Source: Ignavibacteriales bacterium
GTDB taxonomy: Bacteria; Bacteroidota; Ignavibacteria; Ignavibacteriales; Melioribacteraceae
Length of the DNA: 64,000 nucleotides
Direction: 5' to 3'
Assembly: GCA_021740915.1 (NCBI GenBank)
Contig: JAIOYW010000009.1
Location: 62,001-126,000, forward strand
Part shown: positions 42,993 through 56,298 of the stretch, piece by piece
How positions within the stretch are numbered: the stretch's first letter is position 1
How the letters are laid out: every line of letters starts with the position of its first letter
The notes under the pieces: generated by a model
What the model was told of the DNA's origin: nothing
What the model saw: only the letters and a program-made list of their open reading frames with translations
Database searches by the model: none
Translations under genes and position numbers: made by a program

Positions 42993-43006
42993 AGAGGAAA
43001 ATTTTG

Positions 43007-45094
43007 ATGGAAAATTTTGATGAACTTTTACTCAAAAAAACTAAACCGGTTAAACCGGATTTACTGTATATTGACGATGACTACGAGAACCTGAGCAGTT
43101 TCAAATTTCAGTTTATGGATTATTATAATATAACGATTGCGAAAAGTGCTGAGCAGGGATACGCCGAACTTATTAAAAAAACCTTCCCAATAATTATCGC
43201 TGATCAAAGAATGCCGGGAATGACCGGCACACAATTTTTTGAAAAAATTCTGCCGGAATTTCCCAAAACAAAAAGAATGATATTAACCGGGTACAGCGAT
43301 TTTCAATCCATTATAGATGCAATAAATAAAGGGCAGATATATTATTATCTTCAGAAGCCGTGGAATGAGAAAGAAGTTATTCTCGTAATTAAAAACGCCC
43401 TTGAATCGCTTGAATTCGAAAGAAAAAATGATGAACTGATACACCTGCTTACTCATACAAATGAAAAACTTGAAAAAAGCAAAAAAGAACTTCAATGGAG
43501 AATTGAAGAGACCCTGAGCGCCGAAGAAAGATACAGGGATCTTTTTGATAACAATCCCATTGCAGTAATAGAGATGGACTTTTCCGAGATAATACCCTTT
43601 GTATTAAAATTGAAGGCTGAGAAGCCGGATTCAATTGAAAAATATTTTGATGAAAATCCGGAATACTTAAACGAGTTTGCGGGGAAAGTGCATCTTGTTG
43701 ATTTTAACAGGGCAGCGCTCTCATTCTGGGGTATAGAACGTAAGAGTGAACTAAGGAAAAGGCTTCCCGCATTGCTGAGGTCCGGCTCGCGCGACACATT
43801 CCTAAAAGTGATCACCGGGATTTTCTACGGGGAACGCATAATAGAATTTGAAACTGAAATAAAGAATTTTAAGGGTGAGAAGCTTGTCGCATATATTACC
43901 TTTTCAGTTTCACCCGGATTTTCAGAAGATTATTCCAGAACCCTGTTTTCACTCACAGATATCACACGCAGAAAAGCCGCTGAAATGGCGCTTAGCGAAA
44001 GCGAAAGAAAATTCAGAACGACCTTTGAACAGGCTCCTGTTGCCATGCATCTTTCCGATATAGGCGGATCGCTGATAATGGTAAACAAATCAATGGCTGA
44101 TATCGTTGAATACTCTCAGGAGGAACTAATTGGAAGGACTCTTTCAGAATTTACGCATCCTGAAGATTGTGAACTGAGTTTAAAAAACCAGAAAAGCCTC
44201 TTTTTACACGAAATTCCGCAAATAAGATTCGAAAAAAGGTATATATGCAAATCCGGGAAAATTATATGGGTCGATATCCATTCGGTTCTTATCCAGGATA
44301 TAAACGATAAGCCGATGTTTGCCGTCACCCATGCCATTGATATAACAGAGCGAAAGCGGATAATGGAGGACCTCATTCTTGCGAAAGAAAGAGCGGAGCA
44401 GGCTGATAAATTAAAATCTGAGTTTCTCGCCCAGGTATCGCATGAAATCAGGACCCCGATGAATTCGATGTTAGGTTTTACGAGTTACCTGAGAGATAAC
44501 AGAATAGAAAGAACAAGAGAGGATATTGATGAGTTTATTGAAGTAGTTCATTCGAGCGGTAAACGACTTATCAGAACCGTTGAGTTACTTCTCAATACCG
44601 CTCAGCTTGAAGTCGGGCTTTATGAACCCACTTTCAGGGAACTCGATCTCGAAGAAATATTGGAAAAACTGCTTCGGGAATTCACTCCTGCAATTGAATT
44701 AAAAGGACTTGTTTTTAAGTATTCTTCTGAAATAAAAGGTATTAAGGTTTATGCTGATGAATATAGCGTTGATCAGATATTTTCAAATGTTTTCGACAAT
44801 GCCATTAAATACACATCATCAGGCTCAATAACTCTTGATCTCAGATTAGACAAAAGCAATGGCAATATAATTGCTGAGTTGGCTGATACCGGAATCGGGA
44901 TGTCCGAGGAATTTTTATCTAATCTCTTCAGACCATTTACACAGGAAGAAAGAGGTTATTCAAGGAGTTTTGACGGAAATGGACTTGGATTATGCCTTGT
45001 AAAAAATTATTGCGATATTAACAATATTACAATCGGGGTAATTTCAAGGAAAAATGAAGGGACGAGCATCACTTTAGCTTTTCGCAAAAAATAA
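43007..45094 (+). CDS. Receiver-PAS-PAS histidine kinase
   Basis: The 695-aa product has no membrane segment. An N-terminal receiver (Asp66 in A-D-Q-R-M-P-G-M-T-G) is of the R-M-P-G type common in RpfG-like regulators. A coiled coil and two PAS domains (about 170-325 and 335-455) follow. The kinase core has His479 in S-H-E-I-R-T-P-M-N, N-A-I-K-Y-T and G-N-G-L-G-L-C-L-V. ATG 43007 is preferred over TTG 43004 because AGAGGA lies 9 bp upstream. It closes the three-gene kinase set. Confidence 0.92.
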   Translation: MENFDELLLKKTKPVKPDLLYIDDDYENLSSFKFQFMDYYNITIAKSAEQGYAELIKKTFPIIIADQRMPGMTGTQFFEKILPEFPKTKRMILTGYSDFQSIIDAINKGQIYYYLQKPWNEKEVILVIKNALESLEFERKNDELIHLLTHTNEKLEKSKKELQWRIEETLSAEERYRDLFDNNPIAVIEMDFSEIIPFVLKLKAEKPDSIEKYFDENPEYLNEFAGKVHLVDFNRAALSFWGIERKSELRKRLPALLRSGSRDTFLKVITGIFYGERIIEFETEIKNFKGEKLVAYITFSVSPGFSEDYSRTLFSLTDITRRKAAEMALSESERKFRTTFEQAPVAMHLSDIGGSLIMVNKSMADIVEYSQEELIGRTLSEFTHPEDCELSLKNQKSLFLHEIPQIRFEKRYICKSGKIIWVDIHSVLIQDINDKPMFAVTHAIDITERKRIMEDLILAKERAEQADKLKSEFLAQVSHEIRTPMNSMLGFTSYLRDNRIERTREDIDEFIEVVHSSGKRLIRTVELLLNTAQLEVGLYEPTFRELDLEEILEKLLREFTPAIELKGLVFKYSSEIKGIKVYADEYSVDQIFSNVFDNAIKYTSSGSITLDLRLDKSNGNIIAELADTGIGMSEEFLSNLFRPFTQEERGYSRSFDGNGLGLCLVKNYCDINNITIGVISRKNEGTSITLAFRKK

Positions 45095-46118: not shown

Positions 46119-48491
46119 ATGAAGTCACGTTTGAGAATACTTGTTGCACTGCTGATGATATATACAATCGGATGTTCGACTTTTAAGGAGCTCGAACCCG
46201 ATCCGGAGATTTTAGCCGGAGAGAGAGGATATCTCGATATCAAAGACGACAAGGAAAATTTTGAACTCGAAAAAGGAGAAAAATACTTTATTCAGTTTCC
46301 TCCTCCGCCAAAGAACAATTTTTACCTTGTTCTTGAGAGTCAGACGACAGCTCCCCTCGGCTATTATTTTACCAATGTTTTTGATGATGGTGAAGGTGCA
46401 AAAATTGAAATGACCGATGAGGGTAAAGGGACAGGAAAAAGTGTATATGAGATAACTACTAATTCTATGCATTATTTCTGGGTTATTGACCGCGTCGGAT
46501 TCGATATGCAGCTTAATGCCAAATATCGTTACGTTCCGGCATGGCGGTATAAATTCGAGAACAAACACGCAGACTACAAAAACATACTCGAAACAAACCG
46601 CGTTGAAAGAAATACTTATGAATCGATAGATGAAAATTTCAACCTGCGCTCACTTAATTTTGACAGAGAGATTGATATTGTTGATACACGGCTGAGCACT
46701 ATCAAAAAAATGCAGGGCGACCTCAACTCCTTATCTTCTCTTTTCCCTCCTGGAGTTGCCAACTCTAATGATGAAGCATTTATCAACTGGACGAATCTGA
46801 GGAATGCCACTACTGATGAGATTGCTTTTCAGAGCAAATATCTTGCAGTGCTAAAATTCTTTTATACTGAAAACAGAACTATTGGGAATACAGAATTATT
46901 TATAAGCGAAACCGGAACATTTCTTAATTTTTTCAACAGCAGTTCCGATCTGCCTCCGAGAGTGATTGAACGAGCAAAGAAAGAAATTGGCGAAAGACTC
47001 GATAATGCAGTCGGCTATTACAATAAGATTCTGAACGCAAAAAATGACGTTGATGAAATAAAATTTTCACCTCCGCTCAGTGATGTGCGTGAACTTTTTA
47101 TTGAAACACGGGGAAGCGCACCGGAAGATTTTAATACATTGATGAGTTATGTTGCCACCCTCAACAAAGAAGCGGCACAGCTCGAGAGGATAAAGGAAGG
47201 TTTGGATGAGATTGATTATAAGTTCAGAAGGGAAAATTCCTGGCCGAACAATAATTTCTATCCCGACGTTTTAAGCAGAATTGAAACTTTGATGCCGCTT
47301 GTGCCAAGAGGTGAAGTTGCTAATTATAGAACATACAGGAATTATAACTGTACGCAATTAATGGAGCGCACAGCAGCCACGAAAAAGAATCAGTTGAGAG
47401 AGATGCAGTTAGGATACGATCAGGCGAAGCTTCTTGTGGTTGAAATTAATAATTACCGTGCACGCTCGGTTTATAAAGAAATTATTAAACTGCTCAACCA
47501 GAACCGGAACCTGACTTTTTTACGCAGGCAGTATCCTGATCTTGATGATTTGTCACTCGAATTTCAGAGAAGAACAATTCAAAATCTGACAATTGGTAAA
47601 GCATATCCGGCGGCAGAGCAAAACCTCATCAATCTTTTTAAGGATGAAGATTATCTCGATTACGCAGGTATCAGACAGAAAAAATCGAATATCGTTCTGC
47701 AGCTTGAGAATGAGCTTTTTGAAAGCATCAAAATCGGATCGAAAGAAAGGGTTGATAAATTTGTACTTGAAAACGAGACGACATTTACAAACGTAAAATC
47801 AATGTACAAGGATTCTGTATTTCTTCCGGCGTATGATATTACCTTCTCTTCGCTTGGGAATAACACTTTGCAGAAAAAGCGTCAGGATATAAACGGTTAC
47901 CTTGCCAATATGAAGCATTTTGATTTTCCGGAGGCGGCAATAAAATCGCTTTATGCCAATTTCACCCGTAATATTTCGCAACAGGGTGTTGAAAAGTGCC
48001 GCGCCATTGTTGATCACGGAACGTTTTATAAGGGCAAGGATATTAAGGTGAGAAATATTATCGCTGAATGCGATATAAATTCACCGAAATGGATAACCCG
48101 GCCTAAGGAATACCGCAGACTTTTTGCTCTTCCGGCGACATCGAACCGTAATGGAAACAATGAATACGTCTTTAAGACGCTGCTTCAGATTCCTTCTGAA
48201 GCTCAGTTCCCGGTGTTCGATATCAATATCAAGCTGCCTGAAGAAGTTGCTAAAAATGCCTCGAACAGGCAATGGTATTCGATAATCAAATTGAATAGCC
48301 GGGAAATCAAGAATGAGGGTAGAATTAAAATAACCGCTCCAACGAGCGAGAATGACTACGAATTCCAGGTTACTCCTGTCTCAATGGATAAGGACGGAAA
48401 AAATATCCTTGAAGTGCGGTTCAATTATCCTGCTTTCAAAGTTTTTGAGATAAGCGTAATGGCTCAGAAACCGATAATCAAGAAAAATTAA
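46119..48491 (+). CDS. Large lipoprotein of unknown function, first gene of a divergent ABC operon
   Basis: The 790-aa product is not recognised. It has a lipoprotein signal ending Y-T-I-G-C, so Cys19 would be lipidated. Residues 35-150 look beta-rich, the long centre (about 155-640) is mainly helical and charged, and the last 120 residues look beta-rich again. There is no enzyme motif. ATG 46119 with GGGGA upstream is chosen over TTG 46113. The next gene starts 17 bp later. As the first gene of an ABC-type operon it may be the envelope-side partner of the transporter. Confidence 0.75.
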   Translation: MKSRLRILVALLMIYTIGCSTFKELEPDPEILAGERGYLDIKDDKENFELEKGEKYFIQFPPPPKNNFYLVLESQTTAPLGYYFTNVFDDGEGAKIEMTDEGKGTGKSVYEITTNSMHYFWVIDRVGFDMQLNAKYRYVPAWRYKFENKHADYKNILETNRVERNTYESIDENFNLRSLNFDREIDIVDTRLSTIKKMQGDLNSLSSLFPPGVANSNDEAFINWTNLRNATTDEIAFQSKYLAVLKFFYTENRTIGNTELFISETGTFLNFFNSSSDLPPRVIERAKKEIGERLDNAVGYYNKILNAKNDVDEIKFSPPLSDVRELFIETRGSAPEDFNTLMSYVATLNKEAAQLERIKEGLDEIDYKFRRENSWPNNNFYPDVLSRIETLMPLVPRGEVANYRTYRNYNCTQLMERTAATKKNQLREMQLGYDQAKLLVVEINNYRARSVYKEIIKLLNQNRNLTFLRRQYPDLDDLSLEFQRRTIQNLTIGKAYPAAEQNLINLFKDEDYLDYAGIRQKKSNIVLQLENELFESIKIGSKERVDKFVLENETTFTNVKSMYKDSVFLPAYDITFSSLGNNTLQKKRQDINGYLANMKHFDFPEAAIKSLYANFTRNISQQGVEKCRAIVDHGTFYKGKDIKVRNIIAECDINSPKWITRPKEYRRLFALPATSNRNGNNEYVFKTLLQIPSEAQFPVFDINIKLPEEVAKNASNRQWYSIIKLNSREIKNEGRIKITAPTSENDYEFQVTPVSMDKDGKNILEVRFNYPAFKVFEISVMAQKPIIKKN

Positions 48492-48508
48492 CGTTTACAG
48501 GGAATCAG

Positions 48509-50245
48509 ATGAATAAAAGACAAATTTATATTGCCGGCTCTGTTGCGGGCGTTATTGTTATCGTACTATTGTACATACTCCTCTCCGGGAGAGATCTTAG
48601 GGGAATAGCGGCTTTTCCTTATATCAGCCACCAGAAACCTGTAGTGGATCCTCACCTTCCTGCATCGGTTTCAATCGCTGATAAAATTGACGAAGTGTTA
48701 TTTGACGGTCTTTTTAATATTTCCGCAAATAAAAGCGGTATTATTTACGAGGACGGTCTTGCTTCCTTCAACGGAATTTCAGGCGACAATGTGGTTTCGA
48801 TTACGCTGAAAAAGAATAAAAAATGGCATGATAGTTACAAAGTATGGCTTGATGATGATGAGTACCGTATTTCGGACAGCACCGCGCACTATTTTTCGGC
48901 TGCTGATGTGCGTTACACACTGAACAGAATACTTAGACTTGGCAGTCTTTCGCCTGATTATATACTTGTAACACAGGCTATGCCCGATGTCGATTTTTCA
49001 GGACCGGAGGCGGATGGGACAATTTATTTCAGATTCAAGGGTGATAGAATCTGGACTGAACCTGATATTAAGGAAGTCCTTTCATTTAAAGTAATTCCTG
49101 AAAAAGCCGGATTTAATGATTTTGAATTCCTTAACGGAACCGGTGAATTTGTGAATCTTCCCCTGAACGAAGAAGGCGTTGCCGGTTTCAGGGCAATTCC
49201 CGGAGGGCTGGCTTCAATACCGAGTCTGCTGTTAAATCCTTTTATCGATAACTCCACTTTTACAACCGAGTTAAAGAATAATAATATAAACGTTTTGCTT
49301 GAGACTCCTTTTGGCAGCGTTTCACCTGTACTCGACGAAAAGGAATTTTTCTATAAATCAAATTCGAGCACAACATTTTTTGCAATCCTGCTTAATACTC
49401 AGAAGTTTGACCGCCAGCAGCGGAGAGAGATCAAAAACCTTATTGATAACAGGAATGTTATTGACCGCTTCTTCCGGGTAGGCACTCAGCAGCAAAGGGG
49501 AATTGTTGATTATCAGGGCAAAAGGAACAATTATCCCGATTACCTTAACAATAGCGTTTTCCCTTCGAACTCGTATTATGTTGATGAGGATATTGTTGTT
49601 CCTGTGGTTGATAGATCGAGACCAAATCTTTCAATATTACCGGATACAATAAGGATAAAAACTTCCGTTGGAATAGGATACAAAGAGGAATTGGAGGATA
49701 TTGCAGGAATTCTTAACGATCCCAAATTATTCAATGGCAAAGTTAAAGTTACCGTAGTTGGAAATAATGATATAAAGAACGGAAATTATGATGCGCTGCT
49801 ACTCCCTTTCACGGGCTACCGCAGCAATTTTCTGTTCGATCTCTACGATATTTTCCTGAGAGAGCCTGATCTTGATATTTACAAGATCAATCTTATTACG
49901 ATGCCTTCAGAGAACGGGGGAACGGCTATAAATCCCGCAAGCTGGAACGGCAGAAATAATTATTTCAGGATTGACGCATTCCAGAACAGCCAGGATAGTG
50001 AAGATCTCAATCTGCTGCTTCAGTATATTTATGGTTTTATGTCAACTCATGAGATCGGCGACAAGCAGGAATATGCCTACAGGATTGATCAGCTTGAAAA
50101 CGACCTTTCATTGGGTGTCTGGATGTTCTCACTGCCTTCACTATCATATTTCAGCGCACAGTTCGACAGCTCAAGCATCGATCTGTTCGGAGTAGCATCA
50201 CAGTTATCGACGATTGAAAAGTGGAAAGAACGTCCGGAGCAATAA
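48509..50245 (+). CDS. Membrane-anchored family-5-like solute-binding protein
   Basis: The 578-aa protein has one N-terminal transmembrane helix (about 7-26) and no lipobox, so it is tethered to the inner membrane. The body resembles peptide/nickel-binding proteins: L-F-D-G-L-F near residue 65, W-H-D-S-Y near 109, and F-S-A-A-D-V-R-Y-T-L-N-R near 130, which is the F-x-A-x-D-V-x-x-S-x-x-R pattern of the family. The rest is strongly diverged. Permeases and a double ATPase follow in the same operon, supporting an ABC import or sensing role. Confidence 0.78.
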   Translation: MNKRQIYIAGSVAGVIVIVLLYILLSGRDLRGIAAFPYISHQKPVVDPHLPASVSIADKIDEVLFDGLFNISANKSGIIYEDGLASFNGISGDNVVSITLKKNKKWHDSYKVWLDDDEYRISDSTAHYFSAADVRYTLNRILRLGSLSPDYILVTQAMPDVDFSGPEADGTIYFRFKGDRIWTEPDIKEVLSFKVIPEKAGFNDFEFLNGTGEFVNLPLNEEGVAGFRAIPGGLASIPSLLLNPFIDNSTFTTELKNNNINVLLETPFGSVSPVLDEKEFFYKSNSSTTFFAILLNTQKFDRQQRREIKNLIDNRNVIDRFFRVGTQQQRGIVDYQGKRNNYPDYLNNSVFPSNSYYVDEDIVVPVVDRSRPNLSILPDTIRIKTSVGIGYKEELEDIAGILNDPKLFNGKVKVTVVGNNDIKNGNYDALLLPFTGYRSNFLFDLYDIFLREPDLDIYKINLITMPSENGGTAINPASWNGRNNYFRIDAFQNSQDSEDLNLLLQYIYGFMSTHEIGDKQEYAYRIDQLENDLSLGVWMFSLPSLSYFSAQFDSSSIDLFGVASQLSTIEKWKERPEQ

Positions 50246-51105
50246 AAAAGAACATTTATAACCGGAGCCTAATAAAGGCAGTATCACTCTTTGTATTAAA
50301 TCTGTTGCTTTTTTCAGGTCTTGCTGCTCAGACCACTGATTATCTTCTGCTCGCATATCCTGCGGAGGCTGTCATATATGATGGTTTTCAGAAAAAACTT
50401 AGCGGAGCGAAAAAAGAAAGTTTTGCCGGGGGTACGCCTTTCAGGATATTACGTAAAGACGGTTATTTTAACGACGGTTTTACCCGGTATATCTACGTTG
50501 AATACGGAGGGAACAATTATTACATCCAGAAGGATGAAAAGGGCAGAATAATAAACTCACAGGCTTGCCTGCCGGAGTTTTTAAGCGGTATTTCAATATC
50601 CCGGAAATTAACCATTACCGATAAAGAAAAAATCACGCTTAATCCGTGGCCCGAGGGTCAGCGGAAAGTGCTTGAGAGCGGTAAAGAAATTAAGGTAATT
50701 TTCAGGTATATGAATAAATACTATATCCAGGAAATTTCAGAGAAGAATGGTCTCGGATGGGCGCAGTTATCATCAAAATTCCTGAAAAAATCAGCAGAAA
50801 CCGGCAGCGGAATTTTAAGATCGCCTCAGATAAAGGATGATCTGAAGAATATAGTAAATGAGCAGAATAAACTTTTCGGCAATTTTAAGCAGCTTTTGGA
50901 TTCGCTTTCCGGAGAAGAGAAAGAAATACCTGTTTACAGGCTCCGGTTTGAAGATTACAGAATAACTATTTTTTCGGGGAACCAGGAATTGGAGAAGAAA
51001 TTCCGTTCAGGGTTTTCTATTCTCGAGAACAAAATAAAAACAAAATTGGCGGGCACCGGGCTAAAAGTGGAAACTATCAAGGGTCAGATCGTTATTACGG
51101 AATAA
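50221..51105 (+). CDS. Secreted protein with SH3-like repeats, unknown function
   Basis: The 294-aa product begins with GTG at 50221 inside the end of the preceding gene (25-bp overlap). A signal peptide ends near L-A-A-Q-T-T (about residue 38). Two stretches (about 45-110 and 130-190) have the look of SH3-like beta barrels, with W-P-E-G-Q and G-W-A-Q-L-S-S-K-F in the second. A helical linker and a small C-terminal domain follow. No catalytic motif is seen. It may bind cell wall or the partner lipoprotein. Confidence 0.65.
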   Translation: MERTSGAIKKNIYNRSLIKAVSLFVLNLLLFSGLAAQTTDYLLLAYPAEAVIYDGFQKKLSGAKKESFAGGTPFRILRKDGYFNDGFTRYIYVEYGGNNYYIQKDEKGRIINSQACLPEFLSGISISRKLTITDKEKITLNPWPEGQRKVLESGKEIKVIFRYMNKYYIQEISEKNGLGWAQLSSKFLKKSAETGSGILRSPQIKDDLKNIVNEQNKLFGNFKQLLDSLSGEEKEIPVYRLRFEDYRITIFSGNQELEKKFRSGFSILENKIKTKLAGTGLKVETIKGQIVITE

Positions 51106-51106
51106 T

Positions 51107-52237
51107 ATGAAAGAAAAACTGTTAAATCATTTATACAGCATTTTTTTTGTATTTATACCGGTGGCTGCATTCATATTTTATTATTCAGGTTCATACCGGA
51201 ATTTTGAAGAAAGTCTGCCCGCCGAGCTGGAACCCTTTCTATCTGCAGAATTTTTTAATCCGGATGATCCTTCACACCGGCAGCTTCTTGCAGAGTTTAT
51301 CAATTATTACTATTCCGATAAACAACAATGGGGCGAAAGAGTAGTTTCAAAACTCGAATCTTTCAGACAGGAAGAATTCTTAAAAAACCGTGACGCCGCA
51401 AAATTTGTCCGGGGAAAACTTACCACTGCAATGGTTTCACAGATTTTCGGACTATTTTCAAAGTTTTTATTCATTTTTTTCGTTGTAATGATTTTGTTAT
51501 TGTATTTCTCAATAAACGGGGGACTGCTCAAATTTATTCTGGCTCAGAGAGCGAAGCCTGAACTGGTTACATTCAAAAAATCAATCTCAATCATTTACGG
51601 ACAATTAAAACAAAATAAATATCTGACTGCCGAGCAGGGGCGGCTTCTTTTTTCAGCGGTAAAATCATTTGGGCGCGTTCTGCTTTATGTTCTGTTATTT
51701 TCGCCTGCCTATGTTATAGCCTACTCATTTAAGAATGATTTCAGCAATAATTCCACAATGATGATGATACTGCTTGGATTTCTTACAAACGGGCTGCTGA
51801 TCAACTATGTAAATAAGTTTTATGGTTTCCTGATGGCAGAGAACAGAAAAAATTATGTTCTGCTGCTGAGAGTTAAAAACCTCAACTGTGAATATAATTT
51901 TGACTTTACCGAATTCCGGACTATAAAATACTTGTTCTCTTTCAACAAGAAATTTTCAGATCATATCCTTGGCGCGATATACAAAAATGCGCTGTTCCAG
52001 TATTTTCATTCAATAAAAGAACTTGCGGCATTTACGGTTTCAGGACTGATAATAATTGAGATGGCGCTTAATATTCAGGGACACCTGAGCTATGAGATGC
52101 TGAAATATGTGCTGAACAGAAATTATGACACTGTTTTTTTTATTGTAATGCTGATTTTTATTCTTATCAAACTGATCGAAATTTCGGTGGATTATTATTA
52201 CGAAAGGCTTTATGCGCGGTATTCAAATAACAAATAA
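51107..52237 (+). CDS. Divergent DppB/OppB-like ABC permease
   Basis: The 376-aa protein has about six hydrophobic segments, with a large extracytoplasmic loop of about 85 residues after the first, as DppB proteins have. The C-terminal part (about 305-372) follows the DppB pattern of helix, short amphipathic loop, N-R-N-Y-D-T-V, long helix and a Y-E-R-L-Y-A-R tail. The cytoplasmic EAA coupling loop is hardly recognisable. It starts 1 bp after the previous stop and overlaps the next permease by 26 bp. Confidence 0.72.
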   Translation: MKEKLLNHLYSIFFVFIPVAAFIFYYSGSYRNFEESLPAELEPFLSAEFFNPDDPSHRQLLAEFINYYYSDKQQWGERVVSKLESFRQEEFLKNRDAAKFVRGKLTTAMVSQIFGLFSKFLFIFFVVMILLLYFSINGGLLKFILAQRAKPELVTFKKSISIIYGQLKQNKYLTAEQGRLLFSAVKSFGRVLLYVLLFSPAYVIAYSFKNDFSNNSTMMMILLGFLTNGLLINYVNKFYGFLMAENRKNYVLLLRVKNLNCEYNFDFTEFRTIKYLFSFNKKFSDHILGAIYKNALFQYFHSIKELAAFTVSGLIIIEMALNIQGHLSYEMLKYVLNRNYDTVFFIVMLIFILIKLIEISVDYYYERLYARYSNNK

Positions 52238-53117
52238 ATTATCTGCGCTTTTGAAGGATTCAATGTCCTATATCCGCAGGAATCGGGACATATTCTGGGC
52301 ATTTATCTGGTCTGCCGGCTTTATGACTTTACTCCTCTGGAATTTTCTTTTTCTCAATTCATCTGCTTTTTCACTTGTTTATAAAGCCTTCGGGAATTCA
52401 TTGTTTTCGGCTTTTGCCGTGATAACATTTTCAACATTGCTCGGTTTCGGATTTACTTATCTCTCCTATTTTTCACGTGTATCCGGAAACAAATATCTGG
52501 GTCTTGGAACGCAGTTTTTTATCAATCTTATAAAATCGATACCGCAGATATTAGGAATACTTGCAGGATACATTTACGCGAATTATCTTATTATCAGGGA
52601 CATGACTCCCGGATCGCTGCCTGTTCTGGTGCTTCTTAGTTTTTCGATAAGCCTTTTTGTCTTTCCTGAAATCTACGATCTGATGCAGGAAAGAATCAAA
52701 TATTTTGAAAGAAAAGATTTTGTGAATGCAATGCTGTGCTGCGGCATAAACCGTTACAGGATAATTTTTTTGGATGTGCTGCTTGTTAACAGCCGTTTTC
52801 ATCTTTTTCATAAAATAATCTCGATATTCGGTATAACTATTTTCCTTCAGTGCAGTGTTGATTTTATTATATCAGTAGGCTTATCAACTGATATAAGTGC
52901 GGCGAACCTGCCTGTAACACTTGGAAGCCTGTTGGCTAAAATGGACAGCAAACAGGATGTTCTTGCAGTAAGCAATATCTGGACAGACCCGTTTTATATT
53001 TTTGAATTATTTTTTGTGCATCTGCAGGGGATAAGTATCGCATTCCTGATCGTTTTTACACTTTTTTCTATCTATAAAATCTCAAACGGTTTTTTCAGCC
53101 GGAAGGATTTATTCTGA
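52212..53117 (+). CDS. Divergent DppC/OppC-like ABC permease
   Basis: The 301-aa protein has about six membrane segments. The region K-D-F-V-N-A-M-L-C-C-G-I-N-R-Y-R-I-I (about residues 169-186) corresponds to the EAA loop, but the Glu-Ala-Ala is N-A-M. The spacing to the Gly is kept. The N-terminal cytoplasmic segment before the first helix resembles DppC. It overlaps the upstream permease by 26 bp and ends 7 bp before the ATPase, which fits a two-permease transporter. Confidence 0.74.
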   Translation: MRGIQITNKLSALLKDSMSYIRRNRDIFWAFIWSAGFMTLLLWNFLFLNSSAFSLVYKAFGNSLFSAFAVITFSTLLGFGFTYLSYFSRVSGNKYLGLGTQFFINLIKSIPQILGILAGYIYANYLIIRDMTPGSLPVLVLLSFSISLFVFPEIYDLMQERIKYFERKDFVNAMLCCGINRYRIIFLDVLLVNSRFHLFHKIISIFGITIFLQCSVDFIISVGLSTDISAANLPVTLGSLLAKMDSKQDVLAVSNIWTDPFYIFELFFVHLQGISIAFLIVFTLFSIYKISNGFFSRKDLF

Positions 53118-53124
53118 AATAATT

Positions 53125-54615
53125 ATGAAGCAGTTTACGTTTTCACTCAATATTAATAAAGATGGGAAAGAACTTCTAAGTCTCAGCGATTTCCGCTTCC
53201 CTCAGAATAAGATCAGTTTTCTTTTCGGGGAATCGGGGATAGGGAAAACTGTTGCCTCAAAAGCGATTTATGGATTACTCAATCCCGATGAATTCAGAGG
53301 GCAGATAAACGGGAAAGATTACGCAGCATACACGAGGGGTAAATTCAGCCGGGCTCTCAGAGCCGGAGGATTTTTTGTTTTTCAGGAACCTTCAACCAGT
53401 TTTAATGCGCTTGAAAAACTGACTGACCAGTTAAGGGAAGGCGATATCTCGTTCAAAGAGGGCGAAAAAAAGATTCTCAGTAGTTTATGGGGCGGGGAAT
53501 TACCGGAGGATTTTGGATCGGTAATTGATATATTTCCTGAACCCTTCAGGCCAAGCGGCGGTGAAAAACAGCGTCTGCTTCTGGCAATGGCATTCAAAAA
53601 ACTTGTTTTGGCTCTGAACACAGAATCAGAGGAACCCTCAATTTTTATCTTTGATGAACCGACCGGAAATCTCGATAACAGGTTCAGGAATCATTTTCTT
53701 GACCTGCTTCTGAAACGATTCCGGGAAAAACCATTTACCGCGCTTTTTATCACCCACGATTATTCTATTGTCAAATTTCTTTCAGATAATCATTCTGAAC
53801 ACAAAACTGATATCCGGTACTATGAGTTCAGAAAAGTTAACGGGGCGCTGAAGCAGGAGGAATTCGATACCGGTCTGCTTTCGGGCTGGCTCGCAAATCT
53901 TAAAAAAATCGGACCGCAGGATTCATCAGGCACGGTGCTTGAACTTGAGCCCTTCGTCAGGGTTTTTGACAGAAGTCTTGTTATTTCCGATAGAAACGGA
54001 AAAGCCCGGCCTATGACAGTGCGCCGCGGCTCGATAGTTTACCTTAAAGCCCCGAGCGGAATGGGAAAAACAACTATTTCGAAGATTATTACCGGCTTGC
54101 AGAAAGCGGCTTATTTTCAGTATAAGACCGGGAATCATCTTGTGGATGACTCAACACCGCAATCTTATTTCGAAAAGCATTTATGGGGAAAAGTTATTTC
54201 AATGACCTTTCAGCACGCCGATGAGGCTTTGAATCCATACGCAAAAGTCCGGAATATGCTTGATGGTTTACCCGAAAGCGCGGGTCTTGTTTCCAAAGGA
54301 GTTGAGAATGTATTAAAACTGCTTTTTGAGGAAGAGATAGACTCGAAATTTCTCAATAAAAGGATTTTTGAGCTTAGCGGGGGACAGAAACAGAAAATAA
54401 ATCTGCTGAGGGCAATGGCTTTACGGACGGAGATATTAATACTTGATGAACCTGTTGCCGGAATGGATCTGATAAGTATTAAAAAAGTAATAAATCTGAT
54501 GTTGTTATTACGTTCGAAGGGCAGTTCAATAATTCTTATCTCGCATAATGAGGATATTTTTGACAGAATCATCCCCGAGGAAAATATCTATTATATCACT
54601 GAAACAAAAGGGTGA
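53125..54615 (+). CDS. Double ABC ATPase (DppD-DppF-like fusion)
   Basis: The 496-aa protein contains two nucleotide-binding domains. Domain 1 has Walker A G-E-S-G-I-G-K-T (35-42), signature S-G-G-E-K-Q-R from 144 and Walker B F-D-E-P from 176. Domain 2 has A-P-S-G-M-G-K-T from 309, S-G-G-Q-K-Q-K from 418 and L-D-E-P from 440. All catalytic Glu residues are present, so both sites should hydrolyse ATP. Peptide transporters usually encode these as two proteins. It ends the six-gene operon. Confidence 0.92.
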   Translation: MKQFTFSLNINKDGKELLSLSDFRFPQNKISFLFGESGIGKTVASKAIYGLLNPDEFRGQINGKDYAAYTRGKFSRALRAGGFFVFQEPSTSFNALEKLTDQLREGDISFKEGEKKILSSLWGGELPEDFGSVIDIFPEPFRPSGGEKQRLLLAMAFKKLVLALNTESEEPSIFIFDEPTGNLDNRFRNHFLDLLLKRFREKPFTALFITHDYSIVKFLSDNHSEHKTDIRYYEFRKVNGALKQEEFDTGLLSGWLANLKKIGPQDSSGTVLELEPFVRVFDRSLVISDRNGKARPMTVRRGSIVYLKAPSGMGKTTISKIITGLQKAAYFQYKTGNHLVDDSTPQSYFEKHLWGKVISMTFQHADEALNPYAKVRNMLDGLPESAGLVSKGVENVLKLLFEEEIDSKFLNKRIFELSGGQKQKINLLRAMALRTEILILDEPVAGMDLISIKKVINLMLLLRSKGSSIILISHNEDIFDRIIPEENIYYITETKG

Positions 54616-54704: not shown

Positions 54705-55295
54705 TTATTCTTGTTCAATCCCCAATATCAAAAGGGGGACCGGTGGATTGTTTCTTCCGTGTCTCAACACATTATAAACCTCGCCTTCATAATATGCGAT
54801 TCCACTACTCATTCGCGATTGCATTTTTTTTGTAGGCAAAACTTCTATTCCAAGGTTAATCACACCACCCGAATAAAATAGCAGATGTTTTACGAATAAG
54901 TCAAATGCAACAAACGCATACTTACCAAACTGGACTTCAACAGCTATTTGATCTTTTACGAAGTCAGTTTGTTTATATGAGGAAATTGGTTCTTTTGTCC
55001 CTTGTGATATCAAAAACTCTTTCTGCTTGTCATACGGCAACATAACTAACTCAGGTAAAATCTTTTGATCAGTTGTTATGTAATATTTATAACGGCTTTC
55101 ATTCCAGCCAAGTTGGTTAAATTTTTTATTAAATATCTTATTCAATTCAATCGGACTATAAAGCATTTTCCCCGTCATCGTTTTTTCTTTGCTGATTTTA
55201 GTTATAAACTTTGAGGCATCGATGCTTTGGATCGTGTCCACAATTTCTTTGTAAAGTTTTTTATGATGAACTATGAGATATTCCTCTCCGTTCAA
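54705..55295 (-). CDS. Type II restriction endonuclease, BstYI/BglII-like; 5' end probably frameshifted
   Basis: The 196-aa frame has the BglII-type active site: Asp111, Glu120 and Gln122 in T-D-F-V-K-D and V-E-V-Q-F-G-K-Y, with the spacing of BglII. From memory the whole sequence resembles BstYI (R^GATCY), including M-S-S-G-I-x-Y-Y-E-G-E near residue 160. The only in-frame start is TTG at 55295, without a ribosome site. The frame stays open upstream and reads Y-S-H-L-N-G across the TTG. An ATG at 55321 forms an ATGA overlap with the methyltransferase stop but is out of frame by one base. The gene is AT-rich. Confidence 0.85.
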   Translation of the reverse strand: MNGEEYLIVHHKKLYKEIVDTIQSIDASKFITKISKEKTMTGKMLYSPIELNKIFNKKFNQLGWNESRYKYYITTDQKILPELVMLPYDKQKEFLISQGTKEPISSYKQTDFVKDQIAVEVQFGKYAFVAFDLFVKHLLFYSGGVINLGIEVLPTKKMQSRMSSGIAYYEGEVYNVLRHGRNNPPVPLLILGIEQE

Positions 55296-55317
55296 ATGAG
55301 AATATTTTGTGCTATTT

Positions 55318-56298
55318 TCATTTCGAATGATTGTGTTTGTTATAAGTACCGTTCAGATTTTCAAATTCTAGTTGTAGCCATTCTTTTGGAATTTGGGATA
55401 CTTTATCATTTGCAGAGGGTTTATGAATCGGTTTATTAATTGGCCGGATATTCAATTTCCCTTCTTGAAGGTCCAATACTCTTTGGTTAGCAATTTTACA
55501 ATATTCTTTTTCTTTTTCTATTCCCAATACATTTCGATTGTTTTTAATTGCTGCGATTACCGTGGAACCAACTCCAGCAAAAGGATCAAGAATCCAACTA
55601 TTATTATCTGTTAAAGCAAGAACACACCGTTCAACCAATTCGATGGGAAATTGACAAGGATGCTCTGTTTTTTCAGGATGATTGGATTTGACGTTTGGGA
55701 TATTCCATAAAGCCGTTTCCCAGTCATTGGCAATAATCTCCCAAATATCACTTGGGTTTTTGCCCAAGGGGTTACCTGATGGTAATCCCTTTTTTTCTCC
55801 TTTAAAGTGTAGTTTCCCAGGGTATTTGGCGGGGATTCTAACGTTATCAAGATTAAATATATATTCATCTGTTTTGCTGAACCACAAAATTGTTTCGTAT
55901 CTTCCGCTAAATCTGTTTGAAGCGTGGAGTCCATGCCCAAAGTGCCATATAATCCTATTACGAAGTTTTAATCCGAATTTCTTGAAAATCTGATAATAAT
56001 AAATATCTAATGGAAAAACTTCACCTTTGTCGACGTAATTTCCAACTTGCCAACAAAGATTTCCTTTGTTCGATAGTACCCTGACAAGTTCGTTTATTAT
56101 TTCTTCCTGAGTATCTAAGTATTTTTCTATACTCGTTTTTATTTCATACGATTTACCAACATTGTATGGAGGAGAAGTTATAATAAGGTCAAATCTTCCA
56201 TCTTCTATTTTTTTTAGAACAGAAAGACTATCCCCATTAACAATCTGATAAGAGATTTCAGGGTTAATAAAATCGAATAATGGTTCTTTAACTTTCAT
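55318..56298 (-). CDS. Site-specific DNA methyltransferase (beta class, probably N4-cytosine)
   Basis: The 326-aa enzyme has catalytic motif IV T-S-P-P-Y (41-45) ahead of the AdoMet motif D-P-F-A-G-V-G-S-T (238-246), the order of the beta class. S-P-P-Y is most common in N4-cytosine enzymes, as in the BglII partner, but N6-adenine cannot be excluded. It lies just upstream of the endonuclease on the same strand, so it is the protecting methylase of a type II system. The AT-rich composition suggests acquisition. Confidence 0.92.
   Translation of the reverse strand: MKVKEPLFDFINPEISYQIVNGDSLSVLKKIEDGRFDLIITSPPYNVGKSYEIKTSIEKYLDTQEEIINELVRVLSNKGNLCWQVGNYVDKGEVFPLDIYYYQIFKKFGLKLRNRIIWHFGHGLHASNRFSGRYETILWFSKTDEYIFNLDNVRIPAKYPGKLHFKGEKKGLPSGNPLGKNPSDIWEIIANDWETALWNIPNVKSNHPEKTEHPCQFPIELVERCVLALTDNNSWILDPFAGVGSTVIAAIKNNRNVLGIEKEKEYCKIANQRVLDLQEGKLNIRPINKPIHKPSANDKVSQIPKEWLQLEFENLNGTYNKHNHSK

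What the first reader, a model, noticed from the sequence alone, without database searches (positions are those of the whole stretch)
46119..54615. Six-gene operon for a highly divergent Dpp/Opp-like ABC machine with its own large lipoprotein
Seen: six tightly packed genes (17, -25, 1, -26 and 7 bp spacing) encode a 790-aa lipoprotein, a membrane-tethered family-5-like binding protein, a secreted SH3-like protein, two permeases with degraded EAA loops and a fused double ATPase with both sites intact. Known: peptide/nickel importers use a free or lipid-anchored binding protein and two separate ATPases, and do not have a large lipoprotein or an SH3-like partner. Inference: this could be an envelope-spanning system in which ATP hydrolysis is coupled to something other than simple peptide uptake, such as signalling, wall remodelling or export of a lipid or peptide. 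It is the strongest candidate here for an undescribed system.
Basis: partly seen in the sequence, partly recalled or inferred. Interest (0 to 1): 0.68.

Follow-up and report, generated by a model that had tools for sequence, protein, structure and literature searches.

The report
Six-part Dpp/Opp-like ABC envelope machine
An uncharacterised six-gene bacterial transport machine, built on a peptide-importer core but always found with a long rod-shaped lipoprotein and a second periplasmic protein, is conserved across several related phyla, so it is a real and apparently undescribed variant of peptide-type ABC importers rather than an oddity of one genome.

Summary
Four parts belong to the peptide/nickel (Dpp/Opp) ABC class: a signal-anchored family-5 binding protein, a DppB-like permease with a coupling-loop insertion, a DppC-like permease, and a fused double ATPase with both sites invariant in 42 homologues. 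The other two, a ~790-aa lipoprotein and a secreted ~290-aa protein, match no Pfam family. AlphaFold models the lipoprotein as two small beta-domains separated by a ~500-residue helical segment. The same set occurs in about 40 distinct full-order loci across Ignavibacteriota, Calditrichota, Fibrobacterota and relatives. In a single-contig Calditrichota genome it is split into two distant clusters, both retained, so the parts go together without linkage. The binding protein is the most conserved part, unlike in canonical Opp operons of the same order. Best reading: a Dpp/Opp-derived type I importer with a dedicated envelope scaffold, probably reaching the outer membrane; substrate unknown. Import itself is inferred, and a signalling or mechanical role is not excluded. 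New variant of a known kind.

The parts
46119..48491 (+). Large lipoprotein (790 aa): lipobox Cys19, beta-domain ~20-140, helical segment ~141-651, beta-domain ~655-785
   Evidence: ORF; Cys19 nearly invariant; no coherent Pfam family in 64 homologues; AF2 model pLDDT 90.9, pTM 0.58; beta-domains resemble PliG (Z 8.0) and collagenase CBD (Z 7.5)
46173..46175 (+). Lipobox cysteine; +2 residue Ser. In 48 homologues read by pattern +2 is A/S/G/T, never Asp
48509..50245 (+). Family-5-like solute-binding protein with N-terminal uncleaved TM anchor (no lipobox)
   Evidence: SBP_bac_5 E=3.3e-4 in window; 44 of 63 homologues match, best 5.5e-13; N-termini
50221..51105 (+).
   Evidence: ORF; signal peptide-like N-terminus; no coherent Pfam family; 51 homologues of near full length
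51107..52237 (+). Permease A: DppB/OppB fold with a coupling-loop insertion of about 22 residues
   Evidence: BPD_transp_1 in 12 of 48 homologues, best 7.9e-8; AF2 pLDDT 87.8; DALI-like Z 17.1 to E. coli DppB; insertion
52212..53117 (+). Permease B: DppC-like MetI-fold permease
   Evidence: BPD_transp_1 in 12 of 47 homologues, best 9.1e-8; PDB hits Mtb DppB, MetI; aligns to own-order DppC over 207 columns
53125..54615 (+). Fused double ABC ATPase (DppD+DppF type)
   Evidence: two ABC_tran stretches; best PDB hits Mtb Opp and Dpp double ATPases
53227..53250 (+). NBD1 Walker A GESGIGKT
   Evidence: residues 35-41 invariant in 42 of 42
53551..53574 (+). NBD1 ABC signature PSGGEKQR
   Evidence: invariant in 42 of 42
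54049..54072 (+). NBD2 Walker A APSGMGKT
   Evidence: A-x-S-G-x-G-K-T kept in 42 of 42
54373..54396 (+). NBD2 ABC signature LSGGQKQK
   Evidence: kept in 42 of 42 apart from one Q/E and K/R changes

Best explanation
A dedicated, envelope-organised type I ABC importer derived from the Dpp/Opp class. Shown: a DppB/DppC-like permease pair, a fused ATPase with two complete catalytic sites, and a family-5-like binding protein whose N-terminus reads as an inner-membrane signal anchor, co-inherited with a large lipoprotein and a secreted protein. Inferred: ATP hydrolysis drives import of a conserved, possibly peptide-like ligand that the tethered binding protein hands to the permeases. Also inferred: the lipoprotein, probably outer-membrane anchored, reaches across the periplasm with its helical segment and docks the binding protein, and the SH3-like protein joins the assembly or touches the cell wall.
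For: Importer core: permease A matches DppB/OppB (Z 17); both permeases match BPD_transp_1; the binding protein matches SBP_bac_5 and aligns to canonical SBPs at E=3e-7; both ATPase sites are invariant. One machine: six-gene order in about 40 loci. In six genomes with lipo-sbp loci lacking the permeases nearby, permease B is found elsewhere (L104, L089, L095, L077, L075, L094). In a single-contig genome the two clusters lie about 3.1 Mb apart in coordinates and both are kept. No seventh partner recurs. Envelope scaffold: lipobox with non-Asp +2 and long helical architecture. Fixed ligand or partner: SBP more conserved than the ATPase in 400 of 400 pairs, while in canonical operons of the same order they are equal.
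Against: No function is tested. Ligand residues equivalent to DppA R383/D436 could not be located because the C-terminal half of the SBP is not alignable. Permease A's coupling loop is enlarged and the EAA glycine is replaced. The ATPase lacks the conserved cysteines of the DppD/F [4Fe-4S] domains. Outer-membrane location rests on E. coli sorting rules. Rod length was not measured, and pTM 0.58 leaves the inter-domain arrangement open.
Confidence: 0.5

Rival explanations
1. A signalling or mechanotransmission machine: the importer core has been repurposed so that ATP cycles move the lipoprotein/SH3-like pair in the periplasm (FtsEX- or MacB-like logic) to control wall enzymes or report envelope state, with little or no import.
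For: Two obligatory non-transport partners; inner-membrane-tethered SBP; SBP more conserved than permeases and ATPase; altered coupling loop in permease A.
Against: Type I importer fold and SBP are retained with both ATPase sites; FtsEX/MacB permeases are a different fold (own knowledge); no recurring peptidoglycan hydrolase or kinase neighbour.
Confidence: 0.25
2. An ordinary, merely divergent peptide importer whose lipoprotein and SH3-like protein are accessory chaperones or anchors without an essential role.
For: Four of six parts are in known families.
Against: Partners are kept across phyla and after the locus is split; the genome already has a canonical Opp operon with a lipid-anchored SBP and two ATPases.
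Confidence: 0.15
3. An exporter or lipid/lipoprotein-trafficking system working in the outward direction through a trans-envelope lipoprotein bridge.
For: Large, possibly envelope-spanning lipoprotein.
Against: The solved fold relatives of permease A are importers and an SBP is retained.
Confidence: 0.1

Closest known systems
E. coli DppABCDF / OppABCDF peptide importers
   Same: DppB-like and DppC-like permeases, two ATPase sites, family-5 binding protein; permease A fold matches DppB at Z 17
   Different: SBP is TM-anchored and its C-terminal half is not alignable; ATPases fused and without the [4Fe-4S] cysteines described for DppD/F (PMC12136057); coupling-loop insertion; two extra co-inherited proteins
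M. tuberculosis OppABCD and DppABCD
   Same: single-chain double ATPase; these are the best PDB hits of the window ATPase
   Different: no large lipoprotein rod or SH3-like partner in the solved complexes (own knowledge)
Microcin C importer YejABEF
   Same: fused double ATPase YejF, hit over residues 33-478 at E=5e-29
   Different: far below the YejF family cut-off; extra partners absent from the yej operon (own knowledge)
PliG-like / PPC-like beta-sandwich domains
   Same: both ends of the lipoprotein resemble such folds, Z 7.5-8.0
   Different: weak matches; the central helical segment has no convincing relative among the chains compared

Membership tests
Dpp/Opp (PepT) type I ABC importers | Two MetI-fold permeases of the DppB and DppC kinds | tested here: met
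   PF00528 in 12/48 and 12/47 homologues; DppB fold Z 17.1 over 232 residues, rmsd 2.9; permease B to DppC profile E=1.1e-5
Dpp/Opp (PepT) type I ABC importers | Family-5 solute-binding protein | tested here: met
   SBP_bac_5 in 44/63 homologues, best 5.5e-13, 45.6 bits over the cut-off in G437; the window protein itself is under the cut-off
Dpp/Opp (PepT) type I ABC importers | Two functional ABC ATPase sites of the DppD/DppF type | tested here: met
   sequence motifs complete and conserved; activity not tested
Dpp/Opp (PepT) type I ABC importers | [4Fe-4S]-binding C-terminal ATPase domain (E. coli DppD/F; to my knowledge not universal in the class) | tested here: not met
   no alignment column with Cys in over 30% of rows; no oligo_HPY hit
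Dpp/Opp (PepT) type I ABC importers | Arg/Asp pair that binds peptide termini (DppA R383/D436, PMC12136057) | tested here: inconclusive
   C-terminal half not alignable to canonical SBPs
Dpp/Opp (PepT) type I ABC importers | ATP-driven import of peptides | not testable with these tools
   needs biochemistry
Outer-membrane lipoproteins | Lipobox with non-Asp +2 residue (E. coli sorting rule) | tested here: met
   48 homologues by pattern, none with Asp; location itself not shown
SH3b domain proteins | Recognisable SH3 profile match | tested here: inconclusive
   no SH3 family among the 25 families shown for 52 members at E<=1; structure not predicted

The most novel reading that the evidence does not exclude
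An envelope-spanning ABC machine of a kind not yet described: a Dpp/Opp-type motor whose inner-membrane-tethered binding protein and trans-periplasmic lipoprotein form a continuous bridge, used for direct outer-to-inner membrane delivery of a ligand or for transmitting force or signal, conserved since early in the Fibrobacterota-Calditrichota-Ignavibacteriota radiation.
Probability: 0.3. Interest if true: 0.75.

Novelty: new variant of a known kind. Interest (0 to 1): 0.56.

Why it matters
ABC importers usually work with a binding protein alone. A conserved six-part machine with a large lipoprotein that may cross the periplasm would show a further way for Gram-negative cells to link the outer envelope to inner-membrane transport, or to turn an importer into an envelope motor. 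It is carried by most genomes searched in the group containing Calditrichia (25 of 36), so it may be a core envelope function of that group.

Tried and rejected
Chance or genome-specific cluster: rejected by about 40 loci with the same order. Part of, or decayed copy of, the canonical Opp operon: rejected; that operon sits on another contig with its own SBP, permeases and two ATPases, and two carrier genomes show no canonical SBP (G023, G028). A conserved seventh partner: flank clustering found no cluster in more than 5 loci. Recent horizontal transfer as the main cause: the SBP tree mostly follows phyla, 11 changes against 30.7 in shuffles. PDB sequence searches with the SBP, lipoprotein, SH3-like and permease A profiles gave no convincing homologue; permease A was resolved by fold. 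Locating the peptide-terminus residues in the SBP failed. A possible perB fusion in L085 is a read-through into what looks like an outer-membrane beta-barrel protein, not a fusion with an ATPase domain. Literature searches found no description of such a system. No known fold was found for the central helical part of the lipoprotein among the chains compared; this does not exclude one. Promoter and terminator scans were at chance level.

Full report
OBSERVATION. The six ORFs and the five spacings (17, -25, 1, -26, 7 bp) are exactly as reported. The genome is a ~4.35 Mb assembly whose nearest named relatives, by the SBP tree, are Melioribacteraceae MAGs of the Ignavibacteriota.

IDENTITY OF PARTS. 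In the window only the ATPase (two ABC_tran stretches) and, weakly, the SBP (SBP_bac_5, E=3.3e-4, under the cut-off) give sensible Pfam matches. With homologues added, permease A (12 of 48, best 7.9e-8) and permease B (12 of 47, best 9.1e-8) match BPD_transp_1, and the SBP matches SBP_bac_5 in 44 of 63 (best 5.5e-13). AlphaFold2 of permease A (pLDDT 87.8) gives DppB/OppB as the best solved relatives: E. coli DppB Z 17.1, rmsd 2.9, 232 residues; Foldseek's best E was 1.3e-3. Permease A keeps the DppB C-terminal signature, but its coupling loop is about 22 residues longer and the EAA glycine is replaced; permease B keeps a near-normal loop. The ATPase has both Walker A and B motifs, signatures and H-loops conserved in 42 homologues and no conserved cysteine, unlike the [4Fe-4S]-bearing DppD/DppF (PMC12136057). 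Its best PDB hits are the M. tuberculosis Opp and Dpp double ATPases, so fusion is not a novelty.

TWO UNKNOWN PARTNERS. The lipoprotein (64 homologues) and the SH3-like protein (52) match nothing coherent in Pfam. The lipoprotein model (pLDDT 90.9, pTM 0.58) has a beta-domain at 20-140, long helices at 141-651 and a beta-domain at 655-785. Only the beta-domains have modest matches, PliG Z 8.0 and collagenase CBD Z 7.5. The lipobox cysteine is nearly invariant, and +2 is never Asp in the 48 homologues read by pattern, which by E. coli rules suggests the outer membrane; this is inference. The SBP carries an N-terminal TM anchor without lipobox in the homologues read. 'SH3-like' remains unproven.

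CONSERVATION. Homologues occur in 5 of 58 relatives, 12 of 395 genomes of the phylum, 25 of 36 genomes of the group containing Calditrichia (E below 1e-100), and 73 named loci: Ignavibacteriota, Calditrichota, Fibrobacterota, Latescibacterota, Zixibacteria, Raymondbacteria. The 73 come from a scan with two peptide patterns, so absence elsewhere is not shown. The order lipo-SBP-SH3-permA-permB-ATPase occurs in 49 loci, about 41 after removing duplicates. One locus (L037) has the permease-ATPase block first. The locus is split in some genomes: G028 breaks after the SH3-like gene, whereas others break after the SBP. In G437, a single contig of 4,978,541 bp, lipo-SBP lies near 1.34 Mb and SH3-permA-permB-ATPase near 4.47 Mb. 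In all 14 genomes tested, including six whose lipo-SBP locus lacks the permeases, permease B is present. Different break points with full retention argue for functional coupling without linkage. The SBP tree mostly follows phyla, so the system is old and largely vertical within this group. No seventh neighbour recurs.

AN UNUSUAL CONSTRAINT. Across 400 locus pairs the SBP is the most conserved part (median identity 0.57, against ATPase 0.48, permease B 0.51, permease A 0.43, lipoprotein 0.38, SH3-like 0.27). It beats the ATPase in 400 of 400 pairs. In canonical Opp operons of the same order, SBP and ATPases are equal (0.43 against 0.44 and 0.41). The two comparisons cover different taxonomic depth, so only the within-operon ranking is compared. 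An unchanging ligand or a partner-packed surface would explain it.

MECHANISM. Shown: Dpp/Opp-type core, intact ATPase motifs, co-inherited partners. Inferred: import direction, ligand type, outer-membrane anchoring and periplasm crossing by the lipoprotein, and the place of the SH3-like protein. The peptide-terminus residues of DppA (R383/D436) could not be placed because the SBP C-terminal half does not align with canonical SBPs.

VERDICT. Real, conserved and apparently undescribed; a new variant of the Dpp/Opp kind rather than a categorically new system on present evidence. No paper describing it was found in the library searched, which does not exclude one elsewhere.

Noticed in passing
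window 54705-56298, - strand: BglII-type restriction endonuclease (PF09195, E=2.5e-23) next to an N6/N4 DNA methylase (PF01555): a probable type II restriction-modification pair directly downstream of the operon.
   Followed up: partly
window 43004-45094, + strand: Response regulator-PAS-histidine kinase protein upstream; kinases appear near a few homologous loci (L014, L035, L037) but not consistently.
   Followed up: partly
L129 (own genome contig C5): Canonical peptide-importer operon with lipid-anchored SBP, DppB, DppC and two divergent separate ATPases, independent of the window operon.
   Followed up: yes
L056 and L104: Records titled Deltaproteobacteria and Caldisericaceae carry SBPs inside Calditrichota branches, probably mislabelled bins.
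   Followed up: no
L085:9267-11111: Permease B reads through in frame into what looks like an outer-membrane beta-barrel protein in a Zixibacteria bin; no ATPase found in that locus.
   Followed up: partly
window 50221-50245: The SH3-like gene starts inside the SBP gene, and several homologues keep a 19-22 bp overlap with a similar MER start, suggesting translational coupling.
   Followed up: no
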